Below are positions 780 to 33,044 of a stretch of DNA of 64,000 bases, piece after piece (the stretch's first letter is position 1; each line of letters starts with the position of its first letter). The translations under genes were made by a program, and so were the position numbers. Source of the DNA: Xylaria sp. FL1777 (taxonomy: Eukaryota; Ascomycota; Sordariomycetes; Xylariales; Xylariaceae); assembly GCA_022578965.1 (NCBI GenBank), contig MU400614.1, forward strand, positions 78,840 through 142,839. Reading direction: 5' to 3'. The notes below the pieces were generated by a model, which did not search any database, was not told the origin of the DNA, and saw only the letters and a program-made list of their open reading frames with translations.

Positions 780-2060
780 AATTGCGCATTTACTAATTAA
801 TTATACAAGCTATAAACTAAGCACTAGAAGTATAAAAGCATTTATTAGTTAATATTATGTGGGCTATAAACTAAGCATTAAAAGTACAAAAGCATTTACT
901 GGTTAATTATTATGTGGGCTACAAACTAAGCATAAAGGAGTGCTAAAATATACAAAGGCATATAAAAAGTGGCAGCACGTTTACTAAGTTAATTATACGG
1001 GCTACAAACTAAGCGTATTGATTAATTATATATATATTTATTAGTTAATTATGTAAGCTATGCTAAGACATATAAACAGAAAGTAACAATTATTACATAG
1101 GCATTTATTAGTTAATTATGCAAACAAAGCACTAAGCTATGCTAAAATAACGTTAATTATGTAAGCTATAAGCATTTATTAGTTAATTATATAGGCATTT
1201 ATTAGTTAATATATGGGCATTTATTGGTTAATTATACGGGCTATACTAAGACATATAAAAGCATATAAAAGGCTATGTAAGCATTTATTAGTTAATTATA
1301 TAGGCTATAAACAAAGCACTAAGCTATGCTAAGATAACTTAATTACGTAAGCTATAAGCATTTATTGGTTAATTATGTAAGCATTTATTAGCAATTATGC
1401 AAGCTATGCTAAAACATATAAAAACATACAGAAAGTAAAAAACAAAGCATTAAAAAGTGCTAAAATAAAAACTAGTAATTAATTATGTAAGCATTTACTA
1501 GTTAATTAAGTATATAAACAAAGCATTAAAAAGTGCTAAAATAATTAAGTTTAATAGTACATTTAATATTTACTAATTAATTATATAAGCTATAAACAAA
1601 GCACTAAAGAGTGCTAAAACATATAAAAAGTAGTAATAACTGCGCATTTATTAGTTAGTTATATAAGTACTTACTAGTTAATTATATAAGCTATAAACTA
1701 AAACTAAAAGTGTTAAAATAATTAAGTTTAATAGTTAATTATATAAGCTATAAGCATTTATTAGTTAATTATGCAAGCTATACTAAAAGTGCTAATATAA
1801 CTAAGTTTAAACGTTTATTAATTAATTATGTAAGCATTTATTAGTTAACTATAAAGGTTATAAACTAAGCACTAAAAGTGCTAAAACATATAAAAGCATT
1901 AAGTACTTACTATATATAAAAAGCAGCAAGCATTTATTACTTGCAGTTAATTATATAAGCATTTATAAATAAATATACATAAGTAAGCATTAAAGTGCTA
2001 ACTTAGCTAGTTTAATGATTAATTAAATATTAAGGCATTTATTAGTACTGGTTAATTAAT
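780..2060. repeat. Degenerate tandem array (attagttaattat...gctataaac unit)
   Basis: Dozens of imperfect copies of a unit built from the words agcatttattagttaattat, gtaagctataaac and aagcactaaaagtgctaaaa follow each other with variable spacing. Neighbouring copies differ mostly by small indels and by C/T or A/G changes, as expected for an old minisatellite mutated by RIP. No coding potential is seen. Confidence 0.75.
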
Positions 2061-2929
2061 AACTAAGTGTGTGAGCTATAAGCTAAGGTTAAGTTTAGCA
2101 AGTGCTAAAATAACTAAGTGTTAATTATGTAGGTTAATTGTGTGAGCATTTATTAAACTAAGCTAATATAGTTTATATAAAAGCTTTACTAAAGGTTAAG
2201 TTTAAAGCACTTAGTGTACTAAATATTTTAATTAATACTTATGCTTTTAGAAAGTTTTCTAAAGGCTTATTTATATATTTATATCTTTAGTAAATAATGC
2301 TAATAACTAATGCTAGTTTTATTAAGTAATCTTTATAGTAATTAAAGCTATATTTTTTATATTTAACTATTTTAGGAGATTTACTATTTAAAACACAACG
2401 CGTTAAGTTATTATTAAGGGTTTATAGTTTAGTGCTAAACTTGGGATAAAAAAGTAACTATTAAACTATATAAACTTGCTTAAATAAAAAAACAACAGTG
2501 AAATAGTAACAAAGGAAAATGTACGCTAAAGACTATTTGTAAGCATATAAGCAGTTTTTATATAGCATATGTTTACTTTATTAAACCGGTAAGCTTTTTA
2601 AACATACAAAAACTTAATAAAGGTATGCTTTGTTTTATAGTGATAATTGGCCTTTTTAGTAAGTTAAGTTTATTATGCTTTAATGTTTATATTTAATTTA
2701 ATAATGAATTATAGCTATAAATAATAGCTAACTTAAAAAAATCGAGGTTTTTTAAAAAATACTAAGGATTTTTTATTATTACTACTATTATTACTACTAT
2801 TATTATTATTATTATTATATTAGCAACTAATTGTTTATATATACTAGGGCTTTATAAATAAACTTGATTTTTTTAGCTAAATATAGTGGCCTAAATAACT
2901 ATATAAGGTACACATGTGTAATTTATGCC

Positions 2930-3200
2930 TTTTTTTGCTAGCAATATATAGTTTCTCTTTAGGTATCTTAGTATGTTTTTTTTTGCTAGCATGCAAGTTT
3001 TAGCTTAAGTAGTACAAAGCTGCAGTGTAATATATAGCTTTTCTTTAGGTGTTTATGCCTTTTTTTGCTGCTTCTTTTTGCTAGCGTGCTAGTTTTAGCT
3101 TAAGTTATATAAAGCTGCAATATATAATTTCTCTTTAGGTATTTATGCTTTGCTAGCAATATATGTATTTCTTTTTAAGTATTAATGCTTTTTTTTGCGT
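2930..3200. repeat. Degenerate tandem repeat of about 100 bp units
   Basis: The words ttttttgctagc, agttttagcttaagt, aaagctgca and ttctctttaggtatt recur in the same order about three to four times. The copies are A/T-degraded. No coding sequence is seen. Confidence 0.65.
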
Positions 3201-5871: not shown

Positions 5872-7748
5872 GCAAATCGAGACCTTAGCAGGAAAGTTGT
5901 CCAGTAAGCAATTCTTGCGCTCAAATCCTTCCTGTTTAAGTAACCTTTGGACCAGAAAGGCTACTATTCGGGTCTATTTCATGTATTGGGAGCTTCTTAT
6001 GGATAATATCCATATATTTCGCTCAGATATCCAGATATAGTGATTACTGACAGCGAGCGTTGACAGTACTATCATGGGTTCTAATTCTTTTAATTTTACC
6101 ATGACATACCACGACATACAGAGTGCAACGTGCTCAACATGCAAAGCTGTCGAGGATTTGGTATGTATTAAAACCTGCTGTTCCTGTTACCTCACTGTCT
6201 CGGTCCTGTATGATTCGTCAGACCGTATGACGCTGAACTTAAGAGATCTAGGCTAACATACTTCTACGTAGTCTAGTTACTGGGTGCCTCCTCTATATTA
6301 CCATGCAGAGAACGGCAGTTTTATTCCTGTTAGGCAGAGCGGAGGTGCATTGATCTACTATTTGTGAGCATCCTGCTGGAACTACATAATCCGCGATCAC
6401 TAGAAGACTGACTTGCAGTAGGCAGCGCTCAGATCCCAAAGATCCCAACGCAGCGGAGGGCCTTATTCCTTTCCCTGAGGACTTCCGCATGATTGCTGGA
6501 ACTCCAAGCAACCGCAACTTCACCGACACCCCGGACCAACGAGCCGTGTCCTTCGTCTGCCTTGGAACTGAAGGCCCAGCTACTTTTGAGCTTCCTAACA
6601 GAAACTGTCCTGGGGGGCTACGGACCCAGCTCATTATGCCGGCTTGCTGGGATGGTCTGAATCTGGACTCCCCGGACCACAAAAGCCACATGGCATATCC
6701 GAGCGGCCTCGATAATGGCGTCTGCCCAGATTCTCATCCGAAACGCTTCATCACCATATTCTACGAAGTGACCTGGAGTGTAGACGATTTCAAGGACATG
6801 TGGTATGGTAACAAACAGCCTTTCGTATTCTCTCATGGGTAAGTTCCTCCGTCTACGCGCCTCCTGCACTTGAGTCTCGGCCATTCCAATATATGGGATG
6901 CTAATATATGACAAAGAGACCCTACAGGTTACGGTTACCACGGTGACTTCATAAATGGCTGGAATATCCCAACCCTCCAGAAGGCAATCAACGAATGCAA
7001 TGCTGCAAGCGGCAACATCGAAGAATGCGGCGCCTTTACATTGCGCGACGACGACGATATGACATCTTGTAAAGTTTTGCCTCGCGTTAACGAGTCTATA
7101 GGCGGCATCCTCCCAGCCCTCCCAGGCTGCAACCCAGTTCAGGCTGGTCCTGAACCTGCGGTGCAACAATCAGGTCAGTCCGCTGGGGCCCTTTATGCCC
7201 CTTTGACATGTCTTAGGAGCGTAAATTGCCGAGTCTAATTAAGAGGGTTTTTAACTCCCACTACTACCTAGCCAGACCCCTTAAATCTTCCCAATTTTTC
7301 TCTTTCGAAATGACAATTACTAACTCTGGAGTATTCAATAGACTGCCGCGACGTAGCTAAGATCGGCGACCCCATTCTCCCTTTCACAGATATGACGCAG
7401 AAACTGGGCTGGAAGTACGTCGCGTGTGCTAAAGATCCAGCGGGACAAAGCCGCACGCTCCCGGACGTGTCCATTGACCAGTCAGACATGACGGTCGAGA
7501 AATGCATATCGACATGCAGCGACAAGGGCTTCGAATACGCCGGTCTCGAGTTCAAATCCCAGTGCTTCTGCGGTCATAATGTCCCGCAGGATCGCCTGCC
7601 GACAAACGGTACACAGGGCGACTGCAGCTTGCCGTGTGCCGGTAATTCGAACCAGTTCTGCGGCGGGGCAGCGCGCGTTTCTATCTACACAAAATGTCCT
7701 GATCCCTCGAACTGCGTAAACTACGATGACGACCATGCTAAGTCGTAG
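5872..7748 (+). pseudogene. Secreted DUF1996 + WSC protein, 5' end decayed
   Basis: The exons 6069-6160, 6272-6363, 6419-6838, 6917-7173 and 7342-7748 splice in frame with GT-AG introns (111, 55, 78 and 168 bp). They encode most of a DUF1996 domain (GSNSFNFTM at the start, then SYWVPPLYYHAENG, RMIAG, GGLRTQLIMPACWDG, FVFSHGDPTGYGYHGDF) followed by a cysteine-rich WSC carbohydrate-binding domain (CFCG near 7,566, CAGNSNQFCGG near 7,638) and a short tail. Known DUF1996 proteins begin with a signal peptide and an RxDPI..PG..S.HVH segment. Upstream here I find only a faint match (GKLSS near 5,900) behind a probable intron, and no start codon or signal peptide, because the gene runs into the A/T-rich block. 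I call it a 5'-eroded gene. It could still be expressed from an unseen first exon. The coding 3' part is free of stops. Confidence 0.7.
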
Positions 7749-21674: not shown

Positions 21675-22604
21675 ATGCCTCCGACACTCATTCTCATACG
21701 GCATGCCCAGGCAGAACACAATGACACTAGTAGGTATCCCAATGGTGTATGGAAATTCCTCGGAACAAAACTAATAGTTCACAGAAGATTACTCTATTCA
21801 CGACCCCAGTCTGACCAAGCTTGGAAGAGAACAATGTGCGAGGTTGAGAAGAGGTCGTATGTGCACACTGGAGTCATTTTCTTCCCTTTCTAGTGACTTT
21901 ATGACTCCCAATATGTCTCGGGAGCATGCATCAGGGGCATAATATTCACCCAAAAGAGTAATTACTGACTCCAGCGAGAATAGTGATAGAAGACCCCCTG
22001 GCCCAGCAAGCCGAGTTGATCATCACCTCTCCAATGCGCCGCACCATTCAGACCGCTTTAGATACAGTTGACTGGCTAATAGAGAAGGGGGTCAAAATAC
22101 AGGCCGATGCTCACTGGCAAGGTATGACTGTCCGCCCGTCTGCTGAATATGAGCTGAGATCATCCCACAGAAAACTCGGCAAAGCCATGTGACGTTGGTA
22201 GCGCAATATCAAGAGTGGCCGAGGAATTCCCCAGCATCGACCTATCCACTGTCGACCCCGTGTGGCCGGACAAGACCACGCCGGCGGGGAGCGAGTATCA
22301 TTACACGAAGACGGCAATCATAGCGCGAGCTCAGGCGGCACTCCAGAAATTATATAAGCGGCCCGAAAAAGTGATAATCATAGTTTCACATTCGGGCTTC
22401 TTGCGTTTGGGCGTGACGGGTTGCTGGTTCTTCAATGCGGATTATCGCATCTTCGACTTTGCACCCATGGGAAGCCCAGGAAGCCCGTATCAGCTAGAGC
22501 AGCACGCTTCCACGAAAGAAACGGGTGGTGGGCTAGGCCACAGCCGGACGGAGCAAGTTCTTCTAGGCTCTGACTTGCCTGACGAGTTTCCGAAAGCTGA
22601 ATGA
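21675..22604 (+). CDS. Histidine phosphatase (phosphoglycerate mutase-like) family protein
   Basis: Four exons (21675-21729, 21785-21856, 21984-22121, 22171-22604) give 232 residues with every junction in frame. The N-terminus carries the catalytic RHG-type motif as LIRHAQAEHN (histidine near residue 9, phosphorylated in the family), then SLTKLGREQCARL, SPMRRTIQTA with the second conserved arginine, and VSHSGFLR with the second catalytic histidine near residue 158. The branch is that of small fungal cytosolic phosphatases with unknown substrates, not glycolytic mutase. The second intron (21857-21983, 127 bp) is near-identical to an intron of the GH2 gene at 32.8 kb; the splice C|gtatgt...atag|TG gives LRRGLIEDPLAQQ. 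Confidence 0.88.
21857..21983 (+). mobile_element. Introner-like element, copy 1 (intron of histidine phosphatase)
   Basis: A 127-bp spliceosomal intron (gtatgt donor, tactgac branch point, atag acceptor). It matches the 127-bp intron at 32,755-32,881 (minus strand) at 112 of 127 positions without gaps. Complementary arms CTGGAGTC (21868-21875) and GACTCCAG (21967-21974) lie 11 and 9 bases from the ends and can pair. The flanking exons of the two host genes are unrelated. Confidence 0.85.
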
Positions 22605-30284: not shown

Positions 30285-33044
30285 TTATTTCTTTCCATTG
30301 CGAGCCTTCGCCGCGTCCTTGAGTGCCTGGATATCCGCCGTCCACTGGCCAACATCAGGGCGTAAGACCCGGCGGTCATACGTCAACAAACCATTAACCT
30401 CGCCCTCCACATCTGTAGTTTGCCTGTGTAACGTAAGTAATGTCAGGGTGAGTTGATCTAATACCGGACAGACTAAAAGAAAAGACTAAACTTACGTCCA
30501 TATAGCGGCTGAGCAGTCCCACTTCTCGACCTGATCTCTTAGTTCTGAAAGGAGAACGTGGCCACGGTAGTTCCAAGCTTCAATGGTCTCGTCGATCTCG
30601 TAAGTCTGGTTGATACCGTCGATCGCCTGTTGGACCTTCCATAAATGGTCCGCAGAGACGTTCTGACCGATGCCGCCGAATTCTCCTTGAATTGCAATGC
30701 GCTTATGGTCATAAGGTGTCGAAGCGATGGAGTAAAAGGGAGTTCCACATTGTGGGTTAGCATAGTGATGATTATCATGCCAGTCACCAAAGCCGTGGTC
30801 AATCCAGCCAGAAGTAGAGTCGACCAGTCTAGTCGGGTCGAGTTTCTTTATGCGTTCTGTCAAATATTCTTCGGGATAATATGTCGTTATTTGAGCCCAG
30901 CCTTCGTTATAGATAATCTACTATTATTAGCTTTGACTCCCTAACGTTCAGAAAGGGAGGTAGGGGCGGGCTTACCCAGGTGTAGATGCTGGGGTAATTC
31001 TTGTGTTGTTCAATCAAAATACCAAGCTGGCGTTCCCATTCTTTTTGTTGATCATCGTTTGGTAACCGGTTTGCTGGCATGGATGGCATGTCTTGAATCA
31101 GTAAGACACCAAGTTCGTCGCAGGCACGGTAGAACAGGGCATTCTCAACCTTGATATGCTTCCGAAGCATATTGAAGCCGAGGTCCTTTAACTGCTTAAG
31201 GTCGAACACCATTGCTTCATGATTTGGTGGAACATAAATCCCGTCAGGCCAAAACCCCTGATCAAGTGTTCCAAATCTGTTAAGACTAAGCGTATATTCT
31301 TTGTAATCGTACCCATACTGGGACTGTGCTTACAAGAAGAAGAACTCGCCGTTGATCAATGGGCGTTTAACGCCGTTGATCTCTCCGCTAGCAATGGTTC
31401 GGAACCCTGTGTAGGAAGTGACCTTGTCATCTCCCACGGTAACTGTAAGGTTGTAGCTAGGTCCAAGTTAGCAAGTGTTCGGGTAAAAGTGAGATTAATA
31501 CGGTAATTCATACAGCGTAGGGCTATCGGGCGACCATAAGCTTGGTGATTTCACCTTGAAAGAAAAGGCTTCGTTGGCTCTTCCCCTTCCAGTAGCAACA
31601 TCCTTCCCGCTGTCATCGGTAACAGTAATTCGAACAGTATCTCTGGAATTTTCACTAGTAGTGGCAGTCACGTTGACTTATTAAGAGCGTATATTAGTAG
31701 AAAGCTAGCGACAATTGCAGCTGTTTATCAACTTACCAGTGCCATACATGTCTGCGGCTACATCAAGCTGAGTGATGTGCTGTGTAGGTACACTGCAGTA
31801 ACTCTGGTCAGTCTTCTCCAATCTAATCTGTACCTTTATTTTTTTTTTCTTTTGGTTGGGGGGATAGGGGGTTGTCTGAGGCGTCACAGACCGACAAGGA
31901 ACTGTTGAACTCTCAATTTGGCCGAGGCAGGAAGACTCCGAGAATGACTTACGACTCCAGCCATACCTGCATCAACGTCAGTCTTAATTTCAACAATCGC
32001 CATTCATCAACTATGATGCCTATGAAGTATTTAGGTACAAACAAAATTAAATGCAAGGAGGGCGTACACTTTGCCAAATCCCAGAGCATGGGGTGTAGAA
32101 GATATGGGAAGGATTTATGGTCTGCTTTCCAATAGGAATCATGTAGCCTACATATCAGAGTTAGCATATTTACGTCCTCGGTAATATTCAGGTATGGTAT
32201 ACTAACCATTGGCATCAGTGGGATCGAAGACATCAACTCGTAATGTATTGGTTCCCTCCTTGACCAGGTCGGTGATATCGAACGAAAATCTCCAATAGCC
32301 ACCAGTGTTGTTTCCTGCAATCTTGTCGTTGACATAAACAGTAGCCTGATAATCGACAGCCTCGAAGTTGATTAGGATCTTATTGCCTTTGCCCTTCAAA
32401 TCTTTGGAAACTTCAAATTCACGAGCAAACCAAGAAGTCTGGGCATGCTGCATCACACCTGAGAGAGCCCCCTATTCGATAGGCATAGATTAGCGATCAG
32501 CGTATACAGCAGAAATCTTGGAGTCGTATATAAGAGGAGTGGAGTAAAAGTTTTATCGTCAGGTAGCCTCTACTCCGGGATCCTATAACAAGGAGATAAT
32601 TTAACTTTGGAAAGCTAACCTCAATACATGAAGGTACAAGAACGTCAGTACCCTGGGGGGTACCAGATGCAGAGGTGCCCTGTCCCCATTTCCATATACC
32701 GTTCAAGCTCTGCCAACGGGATCGCTGAAGCTGTGGTCGGGGATACTCCGGCCACTATGCTCGCTAGAGTCAGTAATTACTCTTCTGGGTGAATATTATG
32801 CTCTTGATGCATGCTCTCGAGACATGTTGGGAGTCCTCAGGTTGTTAGAAAGGGAAGAAAACGACTCTAGTGTGCACATACGGGGTTGGTGCCGACTTTG
32901 TATGTCCAATCCGTATCTAATGGCGGTGTCTTGCAAAGTTAATGTTAGATCGTACTCCTTAACATACTATAGAGAACTAACCTTAACTTCATACCCCAGA
33001 GCCGACAAGGCGAAGAATAGTAATCCCCAGTTATTAGTCCTCAT
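30285..33044 (-). CDS. Secreted GH2 glycoside hydrolase (beta-galactosidase/glucuronidase superfamily)
   Basis: About ten exons read from 33044 down to the stop at 30285-30287; all junctions I checked are in frame (for example 32982-33044, 32882-32929, 32620-32754). The protein has about 640 residues. It starts with a signal-like MRTNNWGLLFFALSALGYEV. It continues with WQSLNGIWKW, the sugar-binding jelly roll (SWFAREFEV, VYVNDKIAGNNTGGYWRFSFDIT), an immunoglobulin-like domain, and a TIM barrel with the acid/base glutamate in IIYNEGWAQ and the nucleophile in IQGEFGGIG. Exact substrate cannot be read from sequence. Such secreted GH2 enzymes attack plant or fungal beta-glycosides. The second intron (32755-32881) is a copy of the intron in the histidine phosphatase gene. 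Intact despite lying beside a gene-poor stretch. Confidence 0.88.
32755..32881 (-). mobile_element. Introner-like element, copy 2 (intron of GH2 gene)
   Basis: A 127-bp intron, same length as copy 1 and 88% identical over its full length, with the same gtatgt donor, tactgac branch and atag acceptor. The complementary arms are CTAGAGTC (32863-32870 on the minus strand) and GACTCTAG (32764-32771 on the minus strand). Relative to copy 1 both arms changed together, so pairing is kept. Intron phase is 0 here and 1 in copy 1. Confidence 0.85.

What the first reader, a model, noticed from the sequence alone, without database searches (positions are those of the whole stretch)
21857..21983. Introner-like element shared by two unrelated genes
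The 127-bp intron of the histidine phosphatase gene and the 127-bp intron of the GH2 gene (32,755-32,881, minus strand) align without gaps at 112 of 127 positions. Introns of unrelated genes in fungi normally show no similarity beyond splice signals. Full-length identity from donor to acceptor, equal length, and different phases (1 versus 0) mean the intron itself was copied. Introner-like elements are known from some fungi and algae; this looks like an active or recently active family in this genome. Most differences are transitions, so RIP may also be acting on it.
Basis: partly seen in the sequence, partly recalled or inferred. Interest (0 to 1): 0.88.

Follow-up and report, generated by a model that had tools for sequence, protein, structure and literature searches.

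The report
Site-choosing spreading intron in a fungus
A 127-base intron has copied itself into roughly ninety or more places in the genes of one Xylaria fungus, landing cleanly at a preferred short DNA word, which gives a handle on the unsolved question of how fungal introns multiply.

Summary
In detail: two 127-bp introns in unrelated genes, 112/127 identical, ungapped. They belong to an introner family of a Xylaria genome (sp. FL1777). End patterns hit 103 places (3' end, control 0) and 85 (5' end, control 0). All 108 listed places were read: 91 are 127-bp-type copies, 13 belong to a longer, more diverged relative, 4 are altered or unclear. No target-site duplication was found in 90 copies. 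Host proteins align gap-free across the junction in 120/120 and 118/118 listed homologues of two genes, less cleanly (90/117) in a third. The 31 copies with homology support were all read in the coding sense (antisense not scanned). The surprise is site choice: 68 of 90 copies sit at (A/C)|TG, against 3.5% of coding positions; in copies fetched after the prediction, 22 of 28 full copies and 29 of all 44 places fit. Papers on ascomycete introners and Xylariales stwintrons report no such bias. A near-terminal inverted repeat shows no covariation. I favour RNA-mediated, site-preferring reinsertion (about 0.6) over a duplication-free DNA transposon (about 0.25). Splicing reads and relatives' genomes were not available.

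The parts
21857..21983 (+). introner copy 1 (127 bp, GTATGT...ATAG), intron 2 of a histidine phosphatase gene; phase 1, splits a CTG Leu codon (C|TG)
   Evidence: NCBI protein P0001 splices it
32755..32881 (-). introner copy 2 (127 bp), intron of a GH2 gene; phase 0, between CCC and TGG (Pro^Trp)
   Evidence: Trp and no gap within 3 aa in 118 of 118 homologues covering the junction
21868..21876 (+). 5' near-terminal inverted repeat CTGGAGTCA (element positions 12-20)
   Evidence: sequence
21966..21974 (+). 3' near-terminal inverted repeat TGACTCCAG (element positions 110-118); overlaps the likely branch point TACTGAC (21963-21969)
   Evidence: sequence; the branch point is a motif recalled from general knowledge, not from a call
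32862..32870 (-). 5' near-terminal repeat of copy 2 (CTAGAGTCG)
32764..32772 (-). 3' near-terminal repeat of copy 2 (TGACTCTAG)
21855..21856 (+). upstream half of the target site of copy 1 (TC|)
21984..21986 (+). downstream half of the target site of copy 1 (|TGA)
32752..32754 (-). downstream half of the target site of copy 2 (|TGG)
21675..22604 (+). host gene 1, histidine phosphatase / phosphoglycerate-mutase-like, 232 aa in my model, three introns (21730-21784 approximate, 21857-21983, 22122-22170)
   Evidence: homologues
30285..33044 (-). host gene 2, GH2 family, several introns; ends approximate
   Evidence: tblastn with P0241

Best explanation
A family of short introns with U2-type splice sites that multiplies as a unit (an introner). 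SHOWN from sequence: copies run from GTATGT to ATAG, sit where the spliced reading frame continues in the same sense, add no exonic base in the genes checked against homologues, have no target-site duplication, and prefer the word Y(A/C)|TG(R). INFERRED: the excised intron RNA, perhaps held by its near-terminal inverted repeat, is put back into another transcript (or into DNA opened by transcription) by reverse splicing at such words. The product is then copied into the gene, and the new copy is spliced out because it brings both splice sites. A longer, more diverged relative with a similar 3' end and the same T (mostly TG) neighbour looks like an earlier wave of the same process.
For: Copy number: 103 and 85 places, controls 0. 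No duplication: in 90 copies, matches of 4-6 bp between the two edges were 0, and 2-3 bp matches (4 and 2) were within the permutation range. Sense: 57 of 62 and 58 of 63 score better in sense; 23 of 50 sense translations hit Pfam above cut-off, six more match solved structures, two more match homologues; antisense was not scanned. Seamless: no gap within 4 aa in 120 of 120 listed homologues of L020, Met in 112; no gap within 3 aa in 118 of 118 for GH2, all Trp. Empty sites: in one TPR gene four sister repeats keep an uninterrupted ATG where the fifth is split (L028). Site choice: (A/C)TG 46 of 62 against 1,396 of 40,012 coding positions, p 1e-53; 22 of 28 full copies read afterwards; 0 of 26 predicted ordinary introns.
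Against: No RNA reads and no relatives' genomes were available, so splicing and recent gain are inferred. About half of the first 63 copies (32) have no homology support for their reading frame. The target is partly palindromic (CA|TG) and the ends carry an inverted repeat, both usual for DNA transposons. The near-terminal stem shows no covariation (95.7% of cells paired, the same as after shuffling), the alignment-based fold did not choose it, and the two single folds are not clearly stable (z -1.04 and -1.93). A codon-usage-only test was weaker: 50 of 62 better in sense, 2 clearly better in antisense. I recall no spliceosomal pairing that predicts |TG. Histidine phosphatase homologues were gap-free within 4 aa in only 90 of 117, and for L022 two of three shown structure alignments have a one-residue gap at or five residues before the junction.
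Confidence: 0.6

Rival explanations
1. A non-autonomous DNA transposon with subterminal inverted repeats that inserts at the centre of a CA|TG-like palindrome without target-site duplication (as Spy transposons do at AAATTT) and carries both splice sites; selection leaves only sense insertions in exons.
For: Near-terminal 9-bp inverted repeat (95.7% of cells paired in 57 aligned copies); the two half-sites resemble each other (left A 58/90 and C 47/90; right, complemented, A 88/90 and C 77/90); duplication-free DNA transposons exist (Spy, passages of PMC4482050).
Against: The target is asymmetric (1.77 against 0.61 bits beside the insertion, with base frequencies that I assumed), and in 13 longer relatives the right side is kept (T 13/13, G 10/13) while -1 is mixed. 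No copy read was shown to be intergenic or antisense, although such copies should survive best; for about half of the first set this rests on open frames only. A transposase was not searched for.
Confidence: 0.25
2. Capture of excised intron RNA or its cDNA at double-strand breaks, as proposed for Xylariales stwintrons; the intron is simply fill-in at a break.
For: Seamless and duplication-free like the stwintrons; the same order of fungi; near-terminal inverted repeats are also reported there (sections and passages of PMC12403724).
Against: Random breaks do not predict a roughly 20-fold preference for (A/C)|TG, nor coding-sense orientation if DNA is captured.
Confidence: 0.1
3. The |TG neighbour is not a target but a splicing requirement: insertions occur anywhere and only those next to TG are spliced well and survive.
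For: The downstream side is stronger than the upstream side; T at +1 in 88 of 90.
Against: Ordinary introns predicted here do not need it (T at +1 in 6 of 26); I recall no such requirement.
Confidence: 0.05

Closest known systems
Introner-like elements of ascomycetes (Collemare 2015, PMC4457414: abstract and passages seen; Gozashti 2022, PMC9860276: abstract, sections 7-9 and passages)
   Same: Near-identical introns at unrelated gene positions, reported sense-biased, no target-site duplication, both splice sites carried
   Different: Strong target word and a near-terminal inverted repeat; [quoted passage not shown] The original 2012 paper was not held and is recalled only
[D1,2] sister stwintrons and type-2 cropped sister introns of Xylariales (PMC8469720: parts of Results; PMC9024468: passages; PMC12403724: three sections and passages)
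   Same: Same fungal order, seamless gain, no TSD, near-terminal inverted repeats of 9-10 nt
   Different: Single intron, not nested; different repeat sequence; 3' repeat overlaps the likely branch point instead of lying between branch point and acceptor; clear insertion-site bias, where those papers report none
TSD/TIR introners of algae and other protists (Gozashti 2022, section 7)
   Same: Inverted repeats, many copies
   Different: No TSD and no splice-site co-option; both splice sites travel with the element
Spy-group DNA transposons (passages of PMC4482050)
   Same: No TSD, insertion within a preferred word
   Different: Word AAATTT there, (A/C)|TG here; no transposase sought here; coding-sense placement here

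Membership tests
Introner (near-identical introns at many unrelated positions) | full-length similarity between introns of at least five unrelated genes | tested here: met
   91 copies of the 127-bp type among 108 places read, one of them (L055) with a replaced 5' end
Introner (near-identical introns at many unrelated positions) | element ends coincide with splice sites | tested here: met
   GT in 89 of 90, TAG or CAG in 90 of 90 (L055 left out; scripts moved ends to the nearest AG or GT within 3 bases where needed, and the start of L051 was moved by one base by hand)
Introner (near-identical introns at many unrelated positions) | spliced in vivo | not testable with these tools
   no RNA reads; one NCBI protein and homologues only
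Ascomycete introner-like element | no target-site duplication | tested here: met
Ascomycete introner-like element | found in transcribed sense | tested here: met
   57 of 62 by ORF score; 31 of 63 copies with homology support, read in sense only; weaker codon-usage result 50 of 62
Ascomycete introner-like element | no terminal inverted repeats | tested here: not met
   9-bp inverted repeat at positions 12-20 and 110-118; it is near-terminal, not terminal
Ascomycete introner-like element | stable RNA secondary structure | tested here: inconclusive
   z -1.04 and -1.93 for the two window copies; no covariation in 57 copies
[D1,2] sister stwintron | two nested introns with an extra exonic G | tested here: not met
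   one GTATGT-ATAG excision restores the frame in the genes checked; G at -1 in 4 of 90
[D1,2] sister stwintron | no nucleotide bias in bordering exons | tested here: not met
   (A/C)|TG in 68 of 90
DNA-transposon introner | target-site duplication, with a splice site co-opted from it | tested here: not met
   both splice sites are constant parts of the element
DNA-transposon introner | autonomous partner with the same ends | not tested
   transposase families were not searched in the genome

The most novel reading that the evidence does not exclude
A spliceosomal intron that behaves like a site-preferring retroelement: the excised intron RNA is reverse-spliced into other transcripts at a recognised word (Y-A/C | TG-R), in the manner of group II intron homing but through the spliceosome, and is then fixed in the genome. 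The word recognition would be the first sequence rule for fungal intron gain that I know of.
Probability: 0.35. Interest if true: 0.88.

Novelty: new variant of a known kind. Interest (0 to 1): 0.66.

Why it matters
How ascomycete introners spread is an open question: in the 2022 survey they lack the duplications and inverted repeats that mark DNA-borne introners, and the Xylariales stwintrons show no insertion-site rule. A family of some ninety similar copies with a sharp, predictive target word and an inverted repeat gives a testable handle. One can ask which molecule reads YM|TGR, look for the empty word in relatives, and try to rebuild the reaction with a reporter in a laboratory fungus. 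It also shows how intron phase bias (phase 1 here) could arise from an insertion word.

Tried and rejected
Target-site duplication: rejected. Idea that the subfamily ending GAACATAG has its own target (3 of 3 copies not at A|TG): written down before more copies were read and refuted, since 4 of 5 new copies of that type sit at A|TG; the companion idea for GATAATAG had one new copy, at A|TG. Idea that the flanking CA...TG belongs to the element: rejected, because the split Met and Trp codons of L020 and GH2 are conserved in homologues and no residues are added. Conserved RNA fold: not supported. Pairing of the -1/+1, -2/+2 and -3/+3 flanks: at shuffle level. Codon usage as the only coding test: too weak here (its intron predictor returned none). 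Later intron predictors gave 9 and 5, then 20 and 26 with 3 and 4 in shuffled sequence, none at (A/C)TG, and a looser one 80 with 45 in shuffled sequence, 2 at (A/C)TG, not used. Frame effect beyond the word: with the full word YMTGR the background is 64/168/113 for phases 0/1/2 and the copies 4/20/2, a modest lack of phase 2 that I leave open. RIP: only a weak CpA excess. The Pfam scans covered the sense strand only; 27 of 50 translations had no family above its cut-off. The filter that defines the 28 full held-out copies was set after the first print of the 44 stretches; over all 44 places 29 are at (A/C)|TG, unclear ones counted as misses. The ends of the longer relatives were chosen by hand.

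Full report
OBSERVATION. The two stretches are as described: 127 bp each, GTATGT to ATAG, 112 of 127 identical without gaps, 12 of 15 differences transitions. Outside the introns similarity ends within a base or two. Phases 1 and 0 are correct: the histidine phosphatase copy splits a Leu codon C|TG, and the GH2 copy sits before a Trp codon. My first automatic phase call for the former was wrong.

WHOSE GENOME. A protein search with the spliced histidine phosphatase gave a 99% identical NCBI protein of Xylaria sp. FL1777 on a contig of 142,839 bases, the length of contig C109 that holds the window. That protein removes the same 127-bp intron but differs from my model at the first intron. For GH2 no protein of this strain is among the 120 listed hits; the best are other Xylaria at 79%. 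Taxonomy: Xylariales, Xylariaceae.

THE FAMILY. The genome has 58.7 Mb. A DNA search scored 40 of 96 candidates; these 40 are near full length at 91-100%. The 22-base 3' end, up to 3 mismatches, occurs 103 times, with 0 in the reversed-pattern control; 100 of the 103 places are listed. The 23-base 5' end occurs 85 times, control 0. Matching the two lists by hand, 8 of the 5' places have no 3' partner, so at least 111 places, 108 of them listed. All 108 were read: 64 with longer flanks and 44 as 201-bp stretches. Of the 64, 63 are copies of the 127-bp type, one of which (L055) has a replaced 5' end and was left out of the edge counts; the 64th (L068) is a longer relative. Of the 44, 28 are full copies of the 127-bp type, 12 belong to the longer relative, and 4 are altered or unclear (L092, L094, L110, L118). 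The first 12 longer relatives measure 142-162 bp in ten and 84 and 95 bp in two, with a 3' end similar to the short type and their own 5' start. Median divergence of the 63 copies from their consensus is 5.5% and the mean pairwise value 10%, with several subfamilies. The longer relatives gave few pattern hits and are more diverged, hence probably older.

WHERE COPIES SIT. In the first set 57 of 62 (58 of 63) have better coding evidence in the sense of the intron than in antisense. With codon usage alone the result is weaker, 50 of 62, with 2 clearly the other way. Of 50 sense translations scanned with Pfam, 23 hit a family above its cut-off. Six others match solved structures, and the two window genes match homologues: 31 of 63 copies with homology support. 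Antisense translations were not scanned. No copy was shown to be intergenic, but the other 32 rest on open frames. Two copies share one gene (L025). One acetoacetyl-CoA-synthetase-like locus (L063) carries a short-type copy and two matches to the longer kind on the same strand.

SEAMLESS INSERTION. For L020 (flavin monooxygenase) 120 of 120 listed homologues (of 1,179 hits) align without gap within 4 residues of the junction, and 112 of 120 have the Met that the intron splits. For GH2, 118 of 118 listed homologues that cover the junction (of 120 listed, 7,268 hits) have no gap within 3 residues and all have the Trp. For the window phosphatase 111 listed homologues have the Leu, but only 90 of 117 are gap-free within 4 residues; the rows of close Xylariaceae that were printed are gap-free there apart from gap columns common to the alignment. 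The shown structure alignments run through the junction in L020, L046, L052, L063 and L070. In L022, of three shown, one has a one-residue gap beside the junction, one a gap five residues before it, and one none. In L028 the host is a chain of TPR repeats: four sister repeats keep ATG uninterrupted (followed by AAY in three and TAT in one) where the fifth is split A|TG.

SITE CHOICE. In 62 copies 46 sit at (A/C)|TG; 1,396 of 40,012 coding positions (3.5%) of 43 of the same genes do (p 1e-53). I wrote down the expectation of at least 60% and then read 44 further places: of the 28 full copies 22 are at (A/C)|TG, 27 followed by TG, 28 by T; over all 44 places 29 fit. Together, in 90 full copies: T at +1 in 88, G at +2 in 77, TG in 76, A or C at -1 in 81, (A/C)|TG in 68, Y(A/C)|TG(R) in 55. 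The 13 longer relatives keep the right half best (T 13/13, G 10/13; A or C at -1 in 9). Among 26 predicted ordinary introns of these loci (4 in shuffled sequence) none has the word. There is no duplication at the edges. Phase 1 prevails (44 of 62 by an ORF-and-codon score in which single calls can be wrong); in the codon-usage phase calls the commonest split codon of phase-1 copies is ATG (28 of 45), then CTG (6).

STRUCTURE OF THE ELEMENT. CTGGAGTCA at 12-20 and TGACTCCAG at 110-118 are inverted repeats; in 57 aligned copies 95.7% of cells pair, yet no more than after shuffling. Since many loci came from a 3'-end search, conservation of the 3' arm is partly due to how the sample was drawn. 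The alignment-based fold does not choose this stem.

HOW IT WORKS. Sense placement, exact-unit, duplication-free insertion is best explained by an RNA step: reinsertion of the excised intron into other transcripts, then fixation in the gene. What is new is that the step prefers a word. The rival, a duplication-free DNA transposon, explains the inverted repeat and the roughly palindromic CA|TG, but less well the asymmetry (1.77 against 0.61 bits) and the apparent lack of intergenic copies. Which molecule reads the word is unknown.

COMPARISON. Gozashti 2022 (sections 7-9 and passages) calls ascomycete introners outliers without TIRs or TSDs. The stwintron papers of the same order report seamless gain with no exon bias and a near-terminal repeat NTIRE-10 of other sequence. 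A 2012 review (passages) reports that fungal introner-like elements lie only co-linear with transcribed DNA. Searches of the held library for introner with fungi, target site, Pezizomycotina, insertion site and phase 1, reverse splicing, and Xylaria, and for the strain name listed no title or abstract that describes this family; the one paper that names the strain was not opened, supplements were not read, and most subscription papers are not held.

Noticed in passing
window 780-2160 and 2920-3200: Clusters of diverged tandem-like repeats (65-97% self-similarity) at the left end of the window.
   Followed up: no
L063 (C213:30000-35000), minus strand, 1-146, 1159-1314, 2530-2655: One short-type introner and two matches to the longer kind on the same strand of one acetoacetyl-CoA-synthetase-like locus.
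   Followed up: partly
L025 887-1014 and 1501-1627, minus strand: Two copies 486 bp apart on the same strand, by translation in one gene of the mpaB/rubber-oxygenase family.
   Followed up: partly
L033 and L069: Two phosphorylase-domain genes that look paralogous carry copies about 7 nt apart in the homologous stretch (by eye), each where its own sequence offers TG: near-parallel gains.
   Followed up: partly
L003 around 1500: Donor GT changed to AT; a GTAATA three bases upstream may serve instead, at the cost of one codon (by eye).
   Followed up: no
L055 1402: First 14 or so bases replaced; a GTAAGT inside the element could be the new donor (by eye).
   Followed up: no
L092: Internal tandem expansion of an ACTTCCAACATG unit inside a copy.
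   Followed up: no
window 5921-6059: Weak profile match (E 0.008) to the 127-bp family, possibly a decayed member or chance.
   Followed up: partly
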